DNA from: Tilletia caries
Lineage: Eukaryota > Basidiomycota > Exobasidiomycetes > Tilletiales > Tilletiaceae
NCBI GenBank assembly: GCA_032718865.1
Contig: JALUTQ010000003.1
Location: 960,001-1,024,000, forward strand
Reading direction: 5' to 3'
DNA length: 64,000 nt
Under the pieces are notes generated by a model. That model did no database searches. It saw only the letters and a program-made list of their open reading frames with translations, and had not been told where the DNA came from. The position numbers and the translations under genes were made by a program. Positions within the stretch are counted from its first letter, which is position 1; every line of letters starts with the position of its first letter. This document shows, piece after piece, positions 10,101-19,100 of this stretch.

Positions 10101-13100
10101 TGAGCCGGGTGCGCTACCTCCGTTGGGAGTTCCCTGGCCCACCACGGGAGGTGCTGCCGGCGCGACGGCTGCCATCACCATTTGGATGGCGGCTGGGATG
10201 GAGTGGCCTGCTGTGATGAGCGCCCGGGGTAGGTTAGCCGCCGGGGGGTTCGACTCGGCCAGCTCCTCGAGACGGCGCGCGTTCTCTGCGTCACCGTCAG
10301 GGGGTGCAGAGCCGGCGCGTGATTGGAGCTGGGGTGCAGCCCCAGGAGCAGAGTTATCGTCCATGACGCGTGTGCTTGCGATTGAAGGAGTGGGAAGAAA
10401 AGAAAAGAGAGAGATAGAGGTCCTAAGCACGAAAGGCAGAGACCAAGGCAGGCAGACGCGTCGATGTGGTGTGCAGAATCTTTGACGCGTTCTTCGCTGG
10501 GCAAGAGACTGGTCGGTCAATCTCCGAAAGGCCCAACTGACACGGACCACGAGATGTTCGAGCTCCATACCTAGAGCAGGTGCAAGCTTGTGTCTGGATG
10601 CGCCTGCTGACCACTCCTTGGCTGTGGTAAACTTTGCAATCGATGATTGAGATTGGCACGTCGTCGTCGTATTGCATTCCACAGCCAGCGCCGCACCGTC
10701 CGACTCCATCAAATTTCAGCACGCTTGGCAGCTGATGAGCAGGAACAGGGAGGCTCAGGCGGCCACGCTCTTCCTGTGACAGCGCAAAGCGAGGCAAGGT
10801 GACTGGGCGGAACGAGCATGATTGGCGATGGTAGTGGGAGATGGGGTCGGCGCGCAAAGCTGTGGAAGTATGAAGTGTGAAGACAAACCACCAAATAAAA
10901 GCGTTACCCCCGTCAGCAGCCGCTCATATGAAGGTTTTGAGACTGTTCGATCTCACCATTCAACTCAGATGCGTCAGATTGATCCTTGTCAAGATCTGTG
11001 TAACCCAGAATGTTTTCCAAGAACGCGCGACCTCTGCTTCGATGCAAGCAATTGCAGCCGTACGCCGAACACGACCACTGATCCGGTCCGGCGAGAGAGA
11101 CGATACATCGCTTGTCGTCGTATTGAAGAAGTCTAGCTCCTGACGCTCGATTCGAGGACAACACGGAGAGCCACGAAGTTCGTCCATGTAGAAAACCTGC
11201 AATTTCAATGGCAGTAGGCGCGTCTGTGATATAATGAATGAAATGTTTGATGGTAGGTACGTAGGTTATTAAATGCACTGCATAGCATGAACCAGGGCTC
11301 GTGCCGCGAAGCTTCACACCGAAATTCGACAACTCACGAGCAGAAGAAAGGGGTGTGAGGTCTGAGAAGCGCTCCGTAAAGCGGAGGAGCACGTCACCAT
11401 GAATGCAGGGCTGTAGTTTTTTCCCAATCTGACAGTCGCATGTTGCGGTTCGGCTGTCGATTCCCTCGAAGAGGACGAGATGATAAAGACGTCCTGGCTG
11501 TGATTGGAACATCGGGAATCAGGACAAATTGCACCGCCAAAACATTTCTTTGCTACTCACATCCGGATACCCATTCATCACGCTCTCCACAACCCACGTC
11601 CGAGAGTCAATACGTGCGACATGACAGTATCCAGTGGTCGGCATGGATGAGAAATCGGATGAGAGGGGGTCCTCATCCACATCCACATCCACATCCGATC
11701 AGAAATTTTGCCCTCATCCACATCCACATCCACCAGATCCGATGTCACTCGGATGTCATCCGCTTATGTAATCAATTTTTCGGCGCGTGGCTGCCACTCA
11801 CGTGGCAGCCCTCCGCACCCGACTTTCATCGGACCTCATCGGATGTGAACGGGTGATGACCAGATGGCATCCGATGTTACTGCAGCTGACATCCGTTTAC
11901 CATCGGATACTCCTTCGGCACTTCATTTGTGCCATCCTGCTCCTTACTTCCGCTTCTTCTCATCACCAACGTACGGTTCCATACACCCTGTCAGCATCAT
12001 GACATCCCAGACCGAACAGAAGGCCATTCTCAACAGAGGCCTCACAGAATATTGGCCTTCTCCTAGTGTCGTGCAGCAACTCGACCTTCACAAGCTTCTC
12101 TTTGGTCGACCAGACGCTCCCGGCTCGACCCTCGTGCCGCTCTTGGCGAAATATGGACCAAAGCCTGAGAAGCTCTTCGTCAGTGGCGACACGATCACAT
12201 GGACGGACACCCGCGGAGCCGGCCCTCTCGGTCCTGCGATGGAGTTACGGCTGCTCCTTCTCTCTTTCCAGCAGCTCGAGGGACAAGCACCGGATCTTGA
12301 CATCCCACATGTCGCGCAGCAGCTGGTGCCCTGTTTGGCCTCTCATGTCCTCACTCATCTGACCGGCGCAGCCTTGGAGCAGAGCGAGGCGTTGCTTCAG
12401 GATCCTCAGGCGAACGAATATGGCCGGATGGTTTTTCCAATGGGCCCAGCGTTGTTGCACCTTCAGGTTCAGCAAGCAATTTCGACCAAAGAGGTTCACA
12501 TGCTAAGGCAGTTTGTGGAGACTCAGACATCGGATGCATCCAACAGTCAACAGCAGAAGGACGAGCTCGACGAGATACGGGCAGAGCTGCGGAAAGCAGA
12601 GCAGGCGATTACAGCGGCGGAGGAACTGGAAACGCTGCTCGAGAAGGCTCGTTCTGACGTCAAAGAACTGGAGGCGCAGGCGGTGCGAAAAGAGACGGAG
12701 ATCGTCCACGCGAAGGATCAACTTCGGGCCTCTGCAGAGCAAAGCAGCCAGGAGATCGCCAATCTACAAGACCGCCTTCGAGAGGCCGTACGAAAGGGCG
12801 AAAATGCATCTGCCGACAGCCATCTGCGCCTCACCACAGCTGAGGACCATCTCAAGGCCTCCGAAGACCGTCTCAAAGTCTCCGAAGACCAACTGAAGGC
12901 CGCCCTGCAACAGGAAAAATCCCTCAGAACTCTTCTTCGCGAGGCTGATGCGCGCAAGGCCTCGGACGACGACCGCTTGCAAGCAGCGCGCAACTATGGC
13001 AAAGCTTTGGAAGAACGACTGCAACAGGCGGAAGACCGGGTGAATCCACTGGAGGCTCAGCTCAATACCTTCGAGCAGCGGAGCCGAACAGCACAGGTTA

Positions 13101-16100
13101 ACACGGATAAGCTTTCCAAACAGAAGCAAGATCTGGAGGATAACGTGCGGAGCTTGACGTCCAAGTGCGACGAAGCGACGGAGAAGCTGCACTTTTCCGA
13201 GATCGAATGCGCCAAGCTCAGGGAGGAGCTGCGGACAAAGATCGAAGCAGAGAAACGGTCGGAGAACACGAGGAGATCAAACCGACACGCCGGGAGCGAC
13301 ACTGCGTTTGCTACGACGATCGCGCTGGATGCCTTGAAAAAGAACGTGAGTAGGCCGGCACGATGTTCTTCCCACAGATGCCGGCTCGCTGAATCCTGAC
13401 CTTCTCTCTGAACTATGGCTCTTCCAGTTGAAATCGGCAGACCAAAAGGCGCAGCGTTTGCAAGCTGAGCTGGACGGCATGGTACGTTTGTTCGTCGTTC
13501 ATCGTTATCCCTCCAGTGCAGAGATACTGACGTCCTCGTTTGACCGTCGGCTGTAGCGAGCGCAGATTACGGAGACCAATCGTACAGCCGAGGCTTCTCT
13601 GCAAGCTCCTCAAGAAGTACGTCTCCTTCCCACGAACCCCATTTGGCGCGACGCAGCCCGTTATTCGATCGACCCTCAAACTCGTACCGTGGGTGCCGGT
13701 GCGCACGGGAGGGTGCGTGTGGTCCGCGATGACCTTACTCGCAATCGTGTGGTGGTGAAGGTGAACGAGATTCCTCCTCCTGGGGTTCTTCCGCAACATA
13801 TAGGGCGCGAGATCGACTTTCTCGCAGAATCGAGCTGCGACTACGTCGTTCCACTCCTGGACGTGGTTCAGTTCATGGAGGGACAGCATCACTTTCTTGG
13901 ACTGGTCATGCCGTTCTATCCTCGCGATCTGGAAGGGGTTATCTACGACTTCGCAAGGAACCTCAGCGTCAAAGACATCACCCACTACGCCAGTCAAATC
14001 TTGTCCGGACTTTCTTTCCTGGCGTCGCGCGACATCATCCATTGCGACTTGAAGCCTGCTAATTTGCTGGTCGGAAAGAATCACCAACTGGTCCTCGCCG
14101 ACTTCGGCCTGGCGGAGATCAGAGTCCGCCCGCAGCAGAGACGGGTTATCGCATCGATGAATTACCGCTCGCCCGAGTGCTTCTTCCGGACTGAACAACG
14201 CGGGCAGTCGCTGGACATTTGGGCGTTTGGGGTTATTTTGGCGGAGATGATCGGTCGAGCCTTGCCCTGGGATGGATCCACGCCCCTGGACATTTTTGAA
14301 CAGATCCTTCGTCACACCGGTGTTCCTTATCAAGTGGAGCTGTTCCCGGGTGCAGGCAAACACCCCGGTGTGTTCCACGGACAAGACATGCACAGCGAAA
14401 GGTCAATCCCACCGACTGGGCAAGTCAAGTTCGATCCACGCCCTCGGCTTCTGCCCATGTCGATCGACACCTGTGGAACCTCTCGAGATCATTTCCGTGA
14501 TCTCCTTGCGCTTGTGGACCGGACACTGGTCCTCGATCCGGCACGCCGACCGTCGGCATCGCGACTGCTGGAGTCGACCGCCTTTCGGGATTCAGATCCA
14601 CGGGGCGATAGGAAGATGTAGCCTTTTGGATCCGAATTGAGAGCATCGGATGTTGCTGAAATCAGACGTTCCCGGCGGCGGTTGTAGTTACATAGGCACG
14701 ACCTTTCTCTGTCAATGCAATAGAGTCTATGTTGGCCTCTCCTGTTCGTCGCTCCCTGGAAAACTTCTGATATATAGCGCTGGATCAATTATCCAGCGAT
14801 CATCCGCGATTACCCAGTCTCCATCCAAAGGTCATCCGTGGTCATTCAATGCTCACCCGCTTGTCATCCGCTGTCATCCAGTGCCCATCCGTTTGTCATC
14901 CGTAGGCATCCACTATTCACCCGTGTATCATCCACCTTCACTCTTTGTACATCCAGTCACATCGGGATTTCTAAGTGACACAATAAAGCAAGTGCAGGAT
15001 GATGCCATTCTAATTCGAGCAAAGCTACAAGGTCCGCTGAGCCTCCTGCGCCGAGTTAGGAGTCGCCATTGCTGTTGAAGGGTTGCCAACTTCGGATTGT
15101 TCAGATGCCACTGACTTGGGCGTGAGCTGCGGAAGCTCATCGACGATGTCGGGTTCACCGTAGCCATCAAAACCGCTCAGCATCAGGAGCTTTGACATCG
15201 TCAGCTTCTGAATGCTGGAAGGGCCCAAGTTTCGACGAGGAGAGCAAAAGATCCCGGCGTGACTGAAACCGCGTTCCGCTACCGCTGTACTTGCAGGGGT
15301 CGACAACACCACTCTTGCGAGAATGGAGAGTCGCGGAAGCAGCATCGCATGTCTTTTTCCACCACGCGACTGCTCCGTCCGTTGTCTGCAAGTCGTTTGC
15401 GCCCCAGCTGTATAGCTTCGACAGGTATTTCTCGACTTCGTCGGCCTGCGAGCTGGAAGATGTTGGAGCGCAACGCTGGCTTCCGATGAAGCGGTCGTAC
15501 TTCGTCTGAATGGTATTCTCCTCGGCTCTTGATTCCCGGCCAACGAATGTGTCGAGGTATTCGCGTAGCAGATCGTGCGCACCGTGAGCCTGTGACGGAA
15601 AGTGCGCTTCGAGCCATTCGAGCCGGTATCCGGGATGCATGAGCGTGGCTACGATGATCAACTCGTTCTTCTTGGTCCTCTTCAAGTACTTGTCGTGCTT
15701 TTTTGCATCGCAATGATCGCCTTCTTCACGCCGTATGCAGCTGTGCCTTCTCTGATCTCCTTGAGAGAGTCGAGCTGAAGCTGTAGATTTGTTCGAAGGA
15801 CGTGATGGAAGAACAGGACGTCGCCGATCGAAGCTTCCCGCGACTGGGCATCGAGACTGAGCACTTCAGCGCACTCGAGAACGTCGACGAGCTTCTCCAT
15901 CGCCAACCATTCCGGTCTCGAAATTGAGAAAGGTCCCCACTTGCCAGTTTCGTCCGAATTGACCAGCGCTGTAAAAGCCCGTTGGACGTTAACGCAGCCT
16001 CGCATCTCGACCAGAGCTGAGTTCCATCGCGTCGCATTGCGAAGCATCGGAACCACCTTCTTCTTCTCTCCTGGGTATGAGCTCTTGATGAGTTCGGTGA

Positions 16101-19100
16101 ACTGCGTCAGTAATTTCGGGGAGGATCGAATCTTCACCAAGCATTGGTGAATTCGGGTAAGTGCTGAGGAAGTTTCGTCCACGTCCGAGGCCTCGTATTC
16201 TTGGACGATTTCGGCATCATCGGGACTAAGTGCATCTGCATCTTCTCCGTCCCCTTCTTCGCCGTCGCCATCCGGAACAGGCTCTTCCATCAGCTCGGCC
16301 ATCTCCGCGCGCATCTGCTCCTCTTCCTGTTGTAGTTCCTTCTCCTCGACGCTGAGCTCCTGCTCGGCAGCCAGCCCAGTGTATCGACGCAGCCCGCCCC
16401 CGACCTCGGTCTCGTCGATCATAATCGTAGGGGCAAGAACTTTGTCGTTGTCCTTCTCGACCATAGCAAGCTCGGCTCCTGCTGCAGCCGTACCGTCCAG
16501 AACCGCGCGGTTGAGTCCGTGAGCAAAGCAAAGGACAAGGGAGTCGACGATCTTGTGCCGCATTGGGACGACGGAGCCGATTTCGCTGTCGACTTCCAGT
16601 TGAATGAAGCGCGATGCGCGGATGTTGGACTCGGCAGCGTCGGAGACAATGACTCCCGACCAATGGTCCCACAGCTTGTTCTCTTTGAGAATGGAGACGA
16701 TGTGCGCAGCAAAAGTAGCTCCGGTATGGTCGGCGCCGAGCTGATTGAACGCGATGCATGCCTCCCGTCGAACGAAGTTGCCGTCGATCCAGCTAGCGTG
16801 CACTGCGAGAAATGCCGCACGTCTGTTACGTGTCGTCCAGCCATCGTGTTGGATGGAAAACTTGGTGTTTGCCGTCTTGATCGCTTCGATAGCCTGGGTG
16901 AACAGCGAAGAATGCATCTTGTCGAGATCTCGTCCGATCATGCGTGCCGACTTGAGTGCTGACTCCCCAACAGCTGTGTTGGCTCTGGCCATCATCCTCC
17001 GAAAATGCTGATTCCGAGCCGCTGTGAAAGGCTGACTGGTCATCACGATCCAAACGAGGGTCGCTCGCCGTTGATTGGCGGTTTGCGTCTCGAGGGCGGA
17101 GCGACGGACCTACTTCGTCCACTTCGACATGAATGACCGCTGCGACATTGCATCTAGATCACGTCCCTTCGCTGGTTCGGGCACACGCGCAGACTCGTCG
17201 TCCTTTGCCCATGACGGGATCCAGGGTTCGACACCTTTTGTCAAAGGATTGTCCCGGTCGGGGCATGGCCCTCTGCTTGGTTTCGCGTTCAGGTGTCCGA
17301 GGAGGTTTGTGGTAATCCCTGGAGCCGCAGTAAACGTGCGGTGGCAGCAACGACATTTCCAAGTGATGGACTTGATGAATCCAGGACTCGGTTCGAGCTT
17401 GGAAACCGGGTCGAAGTATTTCAGGACTGTGATGCTCTGGACTTCGTTGAGAGCAGGGTATCGCCAGTCTTGGATTCGCCCGTTCTTTGCCCTAACGACG
17501 TCCTTCTGTCGATCCTTGGCTTCGGCTCGCGCTTTGCGCGTTTCTTCAGCCCCAAACCCTCGGCGCTCGCATTCGTCTTGTGCTGCCTGGTCATTGTCGG
17601 GCCCATCGCCGTCCTGTTCGATCCGCGCGTCATTCAAAGCCTGACCCGACAATCGAGGTGCAGATCCTCGATGATGGGATTGCACCGCAGAAGATGCTCT
17701 GGTATTGGTGTAGACTTCTTGTTCCTGTTGCGTCGGGCGAAACTTCTTCTTTGGAGCAGTTTCTGCGCTGGATCGATCCGTGCCCTTCTTACGCTTCTTT
17801 CTCACGGGGGAGGCCGGAAGAGCGTCTTCATCTTCGTCGTCGCTGTCGTCAAGGATGGTCTTGCGGTGTTTACGACCGACAACCGTGATATCTCCATCGT
17901 CATCGGCAGGATCTGATCGGTCCGACGGAGAAGCGGCCTTCCCTTGGCGTCCGCGAGACCCTTCGTCACCCGAGAGTTCAAAGTTGCCGCTGTATCTGCG
18001 GTTCTGCGTACGCGCTCGTGTGCTTGCGCGTACGGGGGAGACCGATCCTTTTCGAGTCGGGACATGGAGCTTTGAACCTACTCCGAGCGACGATGACGTT
18101 CCGGCGGTAGAGGTGGGCTGCCGAGAGGAAGGCTGACCTTTTTTCTTGATGTCCATGAGTATCTTGTCAAAGTTCCCCGGGGTGGGATCGCTCTCAAACT
18201 GCTTAAACGCTGCCTCCACGATGGAGTTGTCGATGCGAGGCTGAAGGTTGGAACAAGAAGAGACAGCGGATGTCAGCATCGAGACCCTATCCGTCGCAGC
18301 GCATGAGTCGTCTAGCTACTCACTCGTTTAGAGAAGTCGTATTCCTCGGGCTCCTTCTTGTCGATGAACTCGCCGTTGTATTCCAGGAAGGCCTTCCAGC
18401 TTGCGGTGGCCTGAGGGAACAGAGAGAGCGAAGAAAGCGCCTCGCCCATGGCCTCGGTCTCAAGGCCATGGCAAAACCATTGCCCGGTGATATCCAAGAG
18501 CTTGAGTTCCTGCGCGTATGATGGCATGGCCGGGAAACTTGCTGAAGGCAATGGATGTGGTGGTGGTGATGGAGCCGACCGGTGACAAAAGTCTTTTCAG
18601 CGTGCTGCGCATGGATGAGATCAGGTGATGGACCGATGATCATTCTAACCAAAAGCAGACAATCATCCGATCTGACCGGGATCTAAGCCGATGACACCAA
18701 AATTTGCAATTTCAAAAATCAAGAATCAGTTGAATGGCGCGAAAATTGGCTTTCACGTGCCTCAGCCGGATGTCATCCATGCATCAGCTGATGACGGTCG
18801 GATGAGGGTCAGATTCGGAAGACATCCGGATGTATCTCATCCGCCTCATCCACATCCGAGCTGAAACCAAAATCGGCCGCCTCATCCACATCCACATCCG
18901 ATTGGTCGGATGATATGACATCCACATCCACCGGTCATCCACACCCATGCCGACCACTGACAGTATCGTTCGTCGAATAGCAGACTACCGTATGTCGCTA
19001 CAACATCGAGGTCTTCGCCGTCTTTGTCGCGATTCTTGAGACCGAAGCAGTGATCCATCGATTCGTCCCCGCTCGGCCCGAAGTCCACAGCATGACTGTC

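What the first reader, a model, noticed from the sequence alone, without database searches (positions are those of the whole stretch)
11632..18959. hAT transposon carrying an intact coiled-coil protein kinase gene
Seen: 15-bp TIRs and an exact 8-bp TSD enclose a hAT transposase and a convergent 821-residue kinase gene with all catalytic motifs and three clean exons. The kinase is intact while the transposase has three lesions. Known: hAT elements normally encode only a transposase, sometimes with small accessory ORFs. Inference: the kinase may serve the element, for example by phosphorylating the transposase or host repair or silencing factors, or it may be cargo that affects the host.
Basis: partly seen in the sequence, partly recalled or inferred. 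Interest (0 to 1): 0.92.

Follow-up and report, generated by a model that had tools for sequence, protein, structure and literature searches.

The report
hAT transposons carrying their own kinase
In a wheat-bunt fungus, a whole lineage of jumping genes of the hAT type carries, beside the enzyme that moves it, its own protein kinase related to the cell-cycle kinases, which suggests that these parasites manipulate the cell with phosphorylation.

Summary
Confirmed, and larger than reported. The window (a Tilletia controversa-like genome) holds a 7,328-bp hAT element with a perfect 15-bp TIR, an 8-bp TSD, a broken transposase and an intact 821-aa kinase gene facing it. Two more insertions carry both genes with other TSDs. 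Genome-wide, 38 of 53 related transposase loci have a kinase within 6 kb, 36 convergent (random placement: mean 3.8, maximum 11). A family with a kinase only about 33-40% identical is bounded by its own TIRs and TSD with both genes inside. Kinases of this family from three Tilletia species form one clade (97/92) beside CDK/MAPK kinases and lack the HRD arginine (16 of 16); the N-termini compared share an RTC4-like domain. Deep divergences show purifying selection. Transposase-only relatives arose at least twice, and one element pairs a window-type kinase with another transposase lineage. So it is a standing accessory gene, not a chance capture. Its substrate is unknown; I favour a host nuclear target. 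Precedents: ciliate TBE kinases and fungal IS3EU alpha-kinases.

The parts
11624..11631 (.). left target-site duplication ACAGTATC
   Evidence: exact copy at 18960-18967
11632..11646 (+). left terminal inverted repeat CAGTGGTCGGCATGG
11647..11985 (.). left subterminal repeat cluster (CATCCG / CATCCAC units)
   Evidence: 203 repeat 6-mers per kb against 5-7 in the coding parts
11999..14621 (+). kinase gene, three exons 11999-13345, 13428-13481, 13557-14621, 821 aa
   Evidence: open through with GT-AG introns
12041..12463 (+). N-terminal RTC4-like domain of the kinase (about residues 15-155)
   Evidence: no direct Pfam match in the window copy; profile-profile match between the RTC4-matching N-termini and those of the other families including the window, probability 97.6, E 4e-12
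12593..13270 (+). coiled-coil linker (tropomyosin-like, residues 199-424)
   Evidence: weak, below cut-off: PF00261 E 0.0053
13680..14579 (+). protein kinase domain, CDK-related, non-RD (HCD)
   Evidence: PF00069 E 6.7e-39; CMGC affinity
14622..15030 (.). gap between the two convergent genes with an internal cluster of the subterminal repeats (mostly 14800-14935)
   Evidence: 26 repeat 6-mers; coding windows of the same length at most 9; shuffles at most 14
15103..18527 (-). hAT transposase gene, broken in this copy (one in-frame stop, about two frame changes)
18600..18944 (.). right subterminal repeat cluster
   Evidence: 197 repeat 6-mers per kb
18945..18959 (-). right terminal inverted repeat
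18960..18967 (.). right target-site duplication ACAGTATC

Best explanation
This is one member of an old lineage of hAT transposons in Tilletia that have two genes as their standing equipment: a transposase and, facing it, a kinase made of an RTC4-like N-terminal domain (in the families whose N-terminus was read), a variable linker and a CDK-related non-RD kinase domain (shown). The kinase was taken up once or a few times, has been kept by selection over deep divergence, is sometimes lost and is sometimes exchanged between element lineages (shown or strongly indicated). It most likely works in trans as an accessory factor that favours the element by phosphorylating a host nuclear target (cell-cycle, DNA-repair or silencing machinery), with the RTC4-like domain as the targeting part and an activity that does not need activation-loop phosphorylation (inferred). 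The structural claim stands at about 0.95, the host-directed mechanism at about 0.4.
For: Three insertions of the window family with three TSDs (ACAGTATC, CCTCCGCA, TCCTTAGC) hold both genes. A far family, C3:618558-626952, has TIR CAAGGCTCGGC, TSD GCCACGAC and the same convergent pair inside. 38 of 53 transposase loci have a kinase within 6 kb, 36 convergent and 2 tandem; random placement mean 3.8, maximum 11 in 2000 runs; 1 of 13 other hAT loci. 16 kinases of this family, 12 from this genome and 4 from T. indica and T. horrida, form one clade, 97/92 by IQ-TREE. Catalytic Lys in 11 of 11 rows that reach it, alpha-C Glu 12 of 12, HxD Asp and DFG 15 of 15. Between families pS 0.59-0.83 against pN 0.29-0.44 (6 deep kinase pairs of the 17 compared). 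Host-directed rather than transposase-directed: transposase-only relatives persist, one with a perfect 11-bp TIR, exact TSD and a 1131-aa open frame; C36 pairs a window-type kinase with a transposase of another clade (p-AU 7.8e-5); S/T-P sites are not enriched in any of 15 transposase pieces (lowest p 0.099); CDK kin.
Against: No expression, activity or substrate data. The kinase and transposase trees agree in part (C4_2419 with C30_957; C27_900 with C3_221), which also fits a kinase tuned to its transposase. FastTree gave the family clade only 0.76 support. Recent copies drift (window/C25/C28: dN above dS) and two of the three have shifted kinase frames. TIR and TSD were read for only two kinase-bearing families; in the third family read across (C36) none was found. 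The T. indica and T. horrida kinases are database proteins; that they lie in elements was not seen. The Mantel correlation is weak (r 0.34, p 0.03; r 0.21, p 0.11 with the other kinase of the two-kinase element). The window's own N-terminus has no direct RTC4 match, and the whole L027 protein scores below the RTC4 cut-off that its N-terminal piece passes.
Confidence: 0.6

Rival explanations
1. The kinase acts on its own transposase (activity, nuclear import, dimerisation or turnover), as a built-in regulator.
For: The two genes travel together and some sister pairs agree in both trees. Subterminal repeats recur between the genes, so the transposase could also bind beside the kinase gene. Host-kinase control of hAT and P-element transposases is recalled, not looked up.
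Against: Twofold loss with a persisting open transposase frame, pairing of a window-type kinase with a foreign transposase lineage, no excess of S/T-P sites in 15 of 15 pieces.
Confidence: 0.3
2. Host-beneficial cargo: the kinase serves the fungus, and the element rides on it.
For: A kinase without a detected transposase or TIR in 5.4 kb keeps an 839-aa open frame, and T. caries has a 94% identical protein in a cluster of 24 sequences.
Against: In the window family the copies with both genes are recent and partly broken; the transposase-less kinases drift (omega 0.73 and 0.95); 18 of the 23 kinase loci that score above the first plainly cellular kinase sit with a transposase.
Confidence: 0.1
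3. Chance capture of a host kinase by one hAT family.
For: Gene capture is common in transposons (recalled).
Against: About 16 families (my own grouping from identities) in the same arrangement; one clade over three species.
Confidence: 0.02
4. Expanded host kinase family into whose neighbourhood hATs insert by preference.
For: Other fungi have expanded FunK1 kinases (recalled; search listing only).
Against: Both genes lie inside TIR and TSD in two families; 36 of 38 pairs share one orientation; the fungal-kinase model PF17667 (its link to FunK1 is recalled) is not among the Pfam matches of the element kinases scanned.
Confidence: 0.03

Closest known systems
[quoted passage not shown]
   Same: A DNA transposon carries a kinase gene of unknown function beside its transposase; the paper's title reports genome-wide purifying selection on TBEs.
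   Different: Other transposase superfamily and host; zinc finger-kinase, not an RTC4-like domain with a CDK-related kinase.
Fungal IS3EU transposons with an alpha-kinase gene opposite to the transposase (Kojima 2025, PMC12730594; outline, abstract, sections 13 and 25 and passages read)
   Same: Accessory kinase in a fungal DNA transposon, in opposite orientation to the transposase.
   Different: 6-bp TSD, TAYGG ends and alpha-kinase there; 8-bp TSD, CA..TCGGC ends and a conventional PF00069 kinase here.
hAT7 elements of rust fungi with a TET/JBP dioxygenase (PMC12730594, passages)
   Same: Fungal hAT elements with an accessory enzyme gene that passes between element lineages.
   Different: Dioxygenase, not kinase; 7-bp TSD; dioxygenase in the same orientation as the transposase in the three hAT7 families named in section 25.
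CDK/CMGC protein kinases
   Same: Nearest solved relatives: 59 of the 60 sequences listed (of 2768 matched) are named as CDK, CDC2 or PHO85 type (CDK2 is over-represented in that collection); PSTAIRE-like helix in two families, C4:998897 and C36.
   Different: No HRD arginine; separate clade beside the four CMGC rows used.
RTC4-like domain (PF14474)
   Same: N-terminal pieces of three element kinases pass the curated cut-off; 3 of the 5 genomic RTC4 matches lie just upstream of element kinase domains.
   Different: Fused to a kinase; the window and four other pieces match only through profile comparison.

Membership tests
hAT superfamily | 8-bp target-site duplication | tested here: met
   three window-family insertions, the C3:618558 family and the kinase-less C5 family
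hAT superfamily | hAT C-terminal dimerisation domain | tested here: met
   PF05699 in L072 and L071, above cut-off; not matched in the broken window pieces, where only a weak PF14372 match (0.038) was seen
hAT superfamily | BED-type zinc finger at the transposase N-terminus | tested here: met
   PF02892 E 3.5e-5 in the window copy, 9.2e-5 in the C28 copy; not matched in L071 and L072
hAT superfamily | short terminal inverted repeats beginning CA(G/A) (feature recalled) | tested here: met
   CAGTGGTCGGC, CAGAGGTCGGC, CAAGGCTCGGC
IS3EU transposons with alpha-kinase | 6-bp TSD and TAYGG..CCRTA ends | tested here: not met
   8-bp TSD and CAG ends; definition
IS3EU transposons with alpha-kinase | alpha-kinase family | tested here: not met
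   Pfam gives PF00069, no alpha-kinase model listed
CMGC/CDK kinase group | groups with CMGC kinases in a tree | tested here: met
   20-row branch of 16 family and 4 CMGC kinases 97/94; few outgroups used, and L032 is called CDK-like by my own reading
CMGC/CDK kinase group | HRD catalytic loop and T-loop threonine | tested here: not met
   HRD arginine absent in 16 of 16; the window activation loop has no threonine
RTC4-like domain family | PF14474 above curated cut-off | tested here: inconclusive
   met in 3 of 9 N-terminal pieces, weak in a fourth, none in five including the window; the two sets are linked by profile comparison
Active protein kinases | phosphotransfer activity | not testable with these tools
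   catalytic residues kept; activity not measured

The most novel reading that the evidence does not exclude
A hAT lineage turned a CDK-type kinase into a portable host-control module: an RTC4-like domain steers a kinase, freed from activation-loop control, to the host's chromosome-end, repair or cell-cycle machinery, opening a permissive state for excision and reinsertion. The module is exchanged between element lineages and doubled in one family, so it works as a transposon-borne counterpart of viral cell-cycle kinases and cyclins.
Probability: 0.27. Interest if true: 0.88.

Novelty: new variant of a known kind. Interest (0 to 1): 0.75.

Why it matters
DNA transposons are usually seen as a transposase between two ends. 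A kinase kept over deep divergence by about 16 hAT families (my grouping), lost and exchanged between them, says that phosphorylation signalling can be part of a transposon's own equipment. Together with ciliate TBE kinases and fungal IS3EU alpha-kinases it points to repeated recruitment of kinases by unrelated DNA transposons and makes the open question of what transposon-encoded kinases do directly testable, with natural pairs of kinase-bearing and kinase-less sisters. It also warns that kinome counts of Tilletia may include transposon genes; two T. horrida members of the family are named Cyclin-dependent kinase 2 in public records.

Tried and rejected
Chance capture and host-neighbour readings were rejected. 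S/T-P enrichment as a sign that the transposase is the substrate: negative in 15 of 15 pieces. Mantel test of co-divergence: weak, so trees and an AU test were used instead. Structure of the N-terminal domain: mean pLDDT 67, no PDB match with E at or below 0.001; kinase model poor, pLDDT 52, not searched. Protein search with the full kinase alignment: apart from three Tilletia proteins, the 120 listed of 134 hits cover at most 36% of the query; it did not return members of its own alignment such as P0004 among those listed, so its reach was limited. The N-terminal domain alone found 3 Tilletia proteins (the query among them) in 112 candidates. These word-based searches cannot exclude relatives outside Tilletia. 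PDB sequence search with the N-terminal profiles: 0 matches. TIR scan of C36, of the solo kinase C4:998816 and of three C17 loci: none found.

Literature (10 searches): no listing showed hAT elements with kinases; most listed papers were not opened. A Tilletia genome paper lists hAT among its TE superfamilies and has 0 occurrences of kinase in its main text (PMC9172201, passages). Subscription journals, preprints and Repbase reports are not covered.

Lengths of some short contigs were set from the last hit in the shuffles.
Full report
Observation. The element at 11632-18959 is as described: 15-bp identical TIRs, exact 8-bp TSD ACAGTATC, and a three-exon 821-aa kinase gene on the plus strand. 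A hAT transposase on the minus strand is broken in this copy by one in-frame stop and about two frame changes; the two yardsticks used disagree on the frame near the C-terminus. The kinase domain is conventional (PF00069, E 6.7e-39), preceded by a weakly tropomyosin-like coil. The nearest public proteins are from Tilletia controversa (98-99%), with a T. indica relative at 65% over the whole queried part, so I take the host to be a wheat-bunt fungus of that species group.

The family moves as a unit. The TIR occurs 54 times exactly, its reversed control never. Two further insertions hold both genes: C25:1018301-1025659, 99.2-99.3% identical, TSD CCTCCGCA, and the rearranged C28:1231179-1239657, 98.6-98.9% for the main blocks, TSD TCCTTAGC. 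Of 22 neighbouring TIR pairs, 2 are 7.3 kb and 20 are 1.03-2.93 kb, too short for both genes; one of the short ones is part of the C28 complex. In the two other large copies the kinase match breaks into two frames in exon 1, so the intact kinase beside a broken transposase in the window is one state of decay among several.

The association is genome-wide. Searches with the kinase, its first exon, three transposase cores and PF00069 gave, transposase loci and 123 kinase loci after merging. 38 of 53 transposase loci have a kinase within 6 kb; 36 are convergent and 2 tandem (one of these is the internally inverted C28 copy). Random placement gave a mean of 3.8 and a maximum of 11 in 2000 runs; of 13 weakly related hAT loci 1 had a kinase that near. 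In ten loci outside the window family (L024, L026, L027, L029, L030, L031, L033, L035, L036, L037) the kinase frame and the transposase C-terminus are seen together on opposite strands in under 4 kb of sequence. Several elements keep long open frames for both, for example C30:954110 (1218 and 760 aa) and C4:2415656 (1183 and 575 aa).

A second family proves the arrangement. C3:618558-626952 (8,395 bp) is bounded by CAAGGCTCGGC TIRs and TSD GCCACGAC and holds a kinase of about 33-40% identity and a convergent transposase; the sequence CAAGGCTCGGCAAC occurs 138 times exactly in the genome. By contrast C5:1622586-1628236 (5,651 bp, TIR CAGAGGTCGGC, TSD CATGCTTT) has a 1131-aa transposase frame, 48-53% identical to the window core by the search used, and no kinase. 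Some elements (C4:1627695-1632988, C22:1174651-1179327, C40:618004-623324) have two kinases in tandem, both facing the transposase.

Architecture. The subterminal repeats of the window family (CATCCG and CATCCAC units) recur as a cluster in the gap between the two genes: 26 repeat 6-mers against at most 9 in coding windows of the same length; the C3 family shows the same with its own, different repeats, 11 against at most 4 in coding windows, though single shuffles reached 16 (P 0.0045). The kinase gene thus sits between two repeat clusters, which offers a simple way to lose it by recombination (inference).

The kinase. Over 15 aligned domains the HxD aspartate, the lysine and asparagine of the catalytic loop and DFG are invariant; the ATP lysine is present in 11 of 11 and the alpha-C glutamate in 12 of 12 rows that reach it. 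The HRD arginine is replaced in 16 of 16 kinases of the family, while 10 of 11 comparison kinases have it. The nearest solved structures are CDKs, and two families keep a PSTAIRE-like helix. In an IQ-TREE analysis the 16 kinases, 12 from this genome and 4 from T. indica and T. horrida, form one side of a branch (97/92), next to the four CMGC kinases used; FastTree gave that branch 0.76. The N-terminal domain matches RTC4 (PF14474) above cut-off in three kinases when the N-terminal piece is scanned (E 2.4e-7, 1.2e-5, 1.4e-5) and weakly in a fourth (0.017); five pieces including the window's show no direct match, and the whole L027 protein stays below the cut-off (21.5 of 23.7 bits). Profile comparison joins the two sets (probability 97.6, E 4e-12). 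Only 5 RTC4 matches were found in the genome and 3 lie just upstream of element kinase domains. The N-termini of some families (for example C27_900 and C3_221) were not compared. That yeast RTC4 was named for telomere capping is recalled; the paper sought was not held.

Evolution. Between families the kinase shows pS 0.59-0.83 against pN 0.29-0.44 (six deep pairs, not all independent), while near copies drift (window/C25 dN 0.010, dS 0.004) and the transposase-less kinases have omega 0.73 and 0.95. In the transposase tree the two kinase-less rows (C5, C35) are nested apart, and one clade for them is rejected (p-AU 5.3e-5), so two losses are the simplest reading. The C36 transposase groups with the C3_221 clade (99/98) and not with the window (p-AU 7.8e-5), whereas its kinase groups with the window kinase (99/95): the two genes have been exchanged between lineages. 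The distance correlation over 9 elements is weak, r 0.34, p 0.03.

Mechanism. Shown: two genes inside one mobile unit; long-term constraint on the kinase; loss and exchange. Inferred: the kinase acts in trans and helps the element. I favour a host nuclear target (about 0.4) over the transposase (about 0.3), because transposase-only elements persist, because kinases can be swapped between transposases that share about 23% identity, and because S/T-P sites are not enriched in the transposases. The missing HRD arginine suggests an activity that does not depend on activation-loop phosphorylation (recalled for non-RD kinases in general). The N-terminus shows no obvious signal peptide by eye, so a secreted role is unlikely.

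Known and new. Transposon-borne kinases are known: a 57-kD zinc finger and kinase ORF in ciliate TBE elements (PMC4724952, passage) and alpha-kinases opposite to the transposase in fungal IS3EU elements (PMC12730594); fungal hAT7 elements carry TET/JBP dioxygenases. The listings of my ten paper searches showed no hAT element with a kinase. This is a new variant of a known kind: an accessory RTC4-like, CDK-related kinase in hAT elements, so far seen in Tilletia only, within the limits.

Noticed in passing
G000 C4:1627695-1632988, C22:1174651-1179327, C40:618004-623324 (L021, L022, L023, L037): hAT elements with two different kinases in tandem, both facing the transposase.
   Followed up: partly
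G000 C4:998816-1001332 (L012, L066); C17:59694-73580; C34:1834204: Element-type kinases without a detected transposase; the first has an 839-aa open frame and a 94% identical T. caries protein (P0121): decayed elements or a co-opted kinase.
   Followed up: partly
G000 C21:1099316, 1119159, 1139019: Three kinase and transposase copies spaced about 19.85 kb apart, as if the whole segment were tandemly repeated.
   Followed up: no
G000 C4:1784734, 1786192, 1787650: TIR plus kinase N-terminal fragments repeated at 1,458-bp spacing.
   Followed up: no
G000 C25:808883, C28:1159220, C28:1244264, C30:1178654: End sequences of the C3:618558 family (CAAGGCTCGGCAAC) lie inside 2.25-2.93-kb derivatives of the window family, as if nested insertion was followed by joint amplification.
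   Followed up: no
P0005 (T. horrida): Public gene model of a kinase of this family ends in a core-histone domain (PF00125, E 1.7e-16): chimeric model or insertion beside a histone gene.
   Followed up: no
G000 C4:2356506-2356784 and C32:1065640-1065807: The two RTC4 matches not beside element kinases; the first is the strongest in the genome (3.3e-11) and may be the host RTC4.
   Followed up: no
L071/L013, C36:1347222-1348086: A reverse-transcriptase-like open frame lies between kinase and transposase of the C36 element (judged by eye).
   Followed up: no
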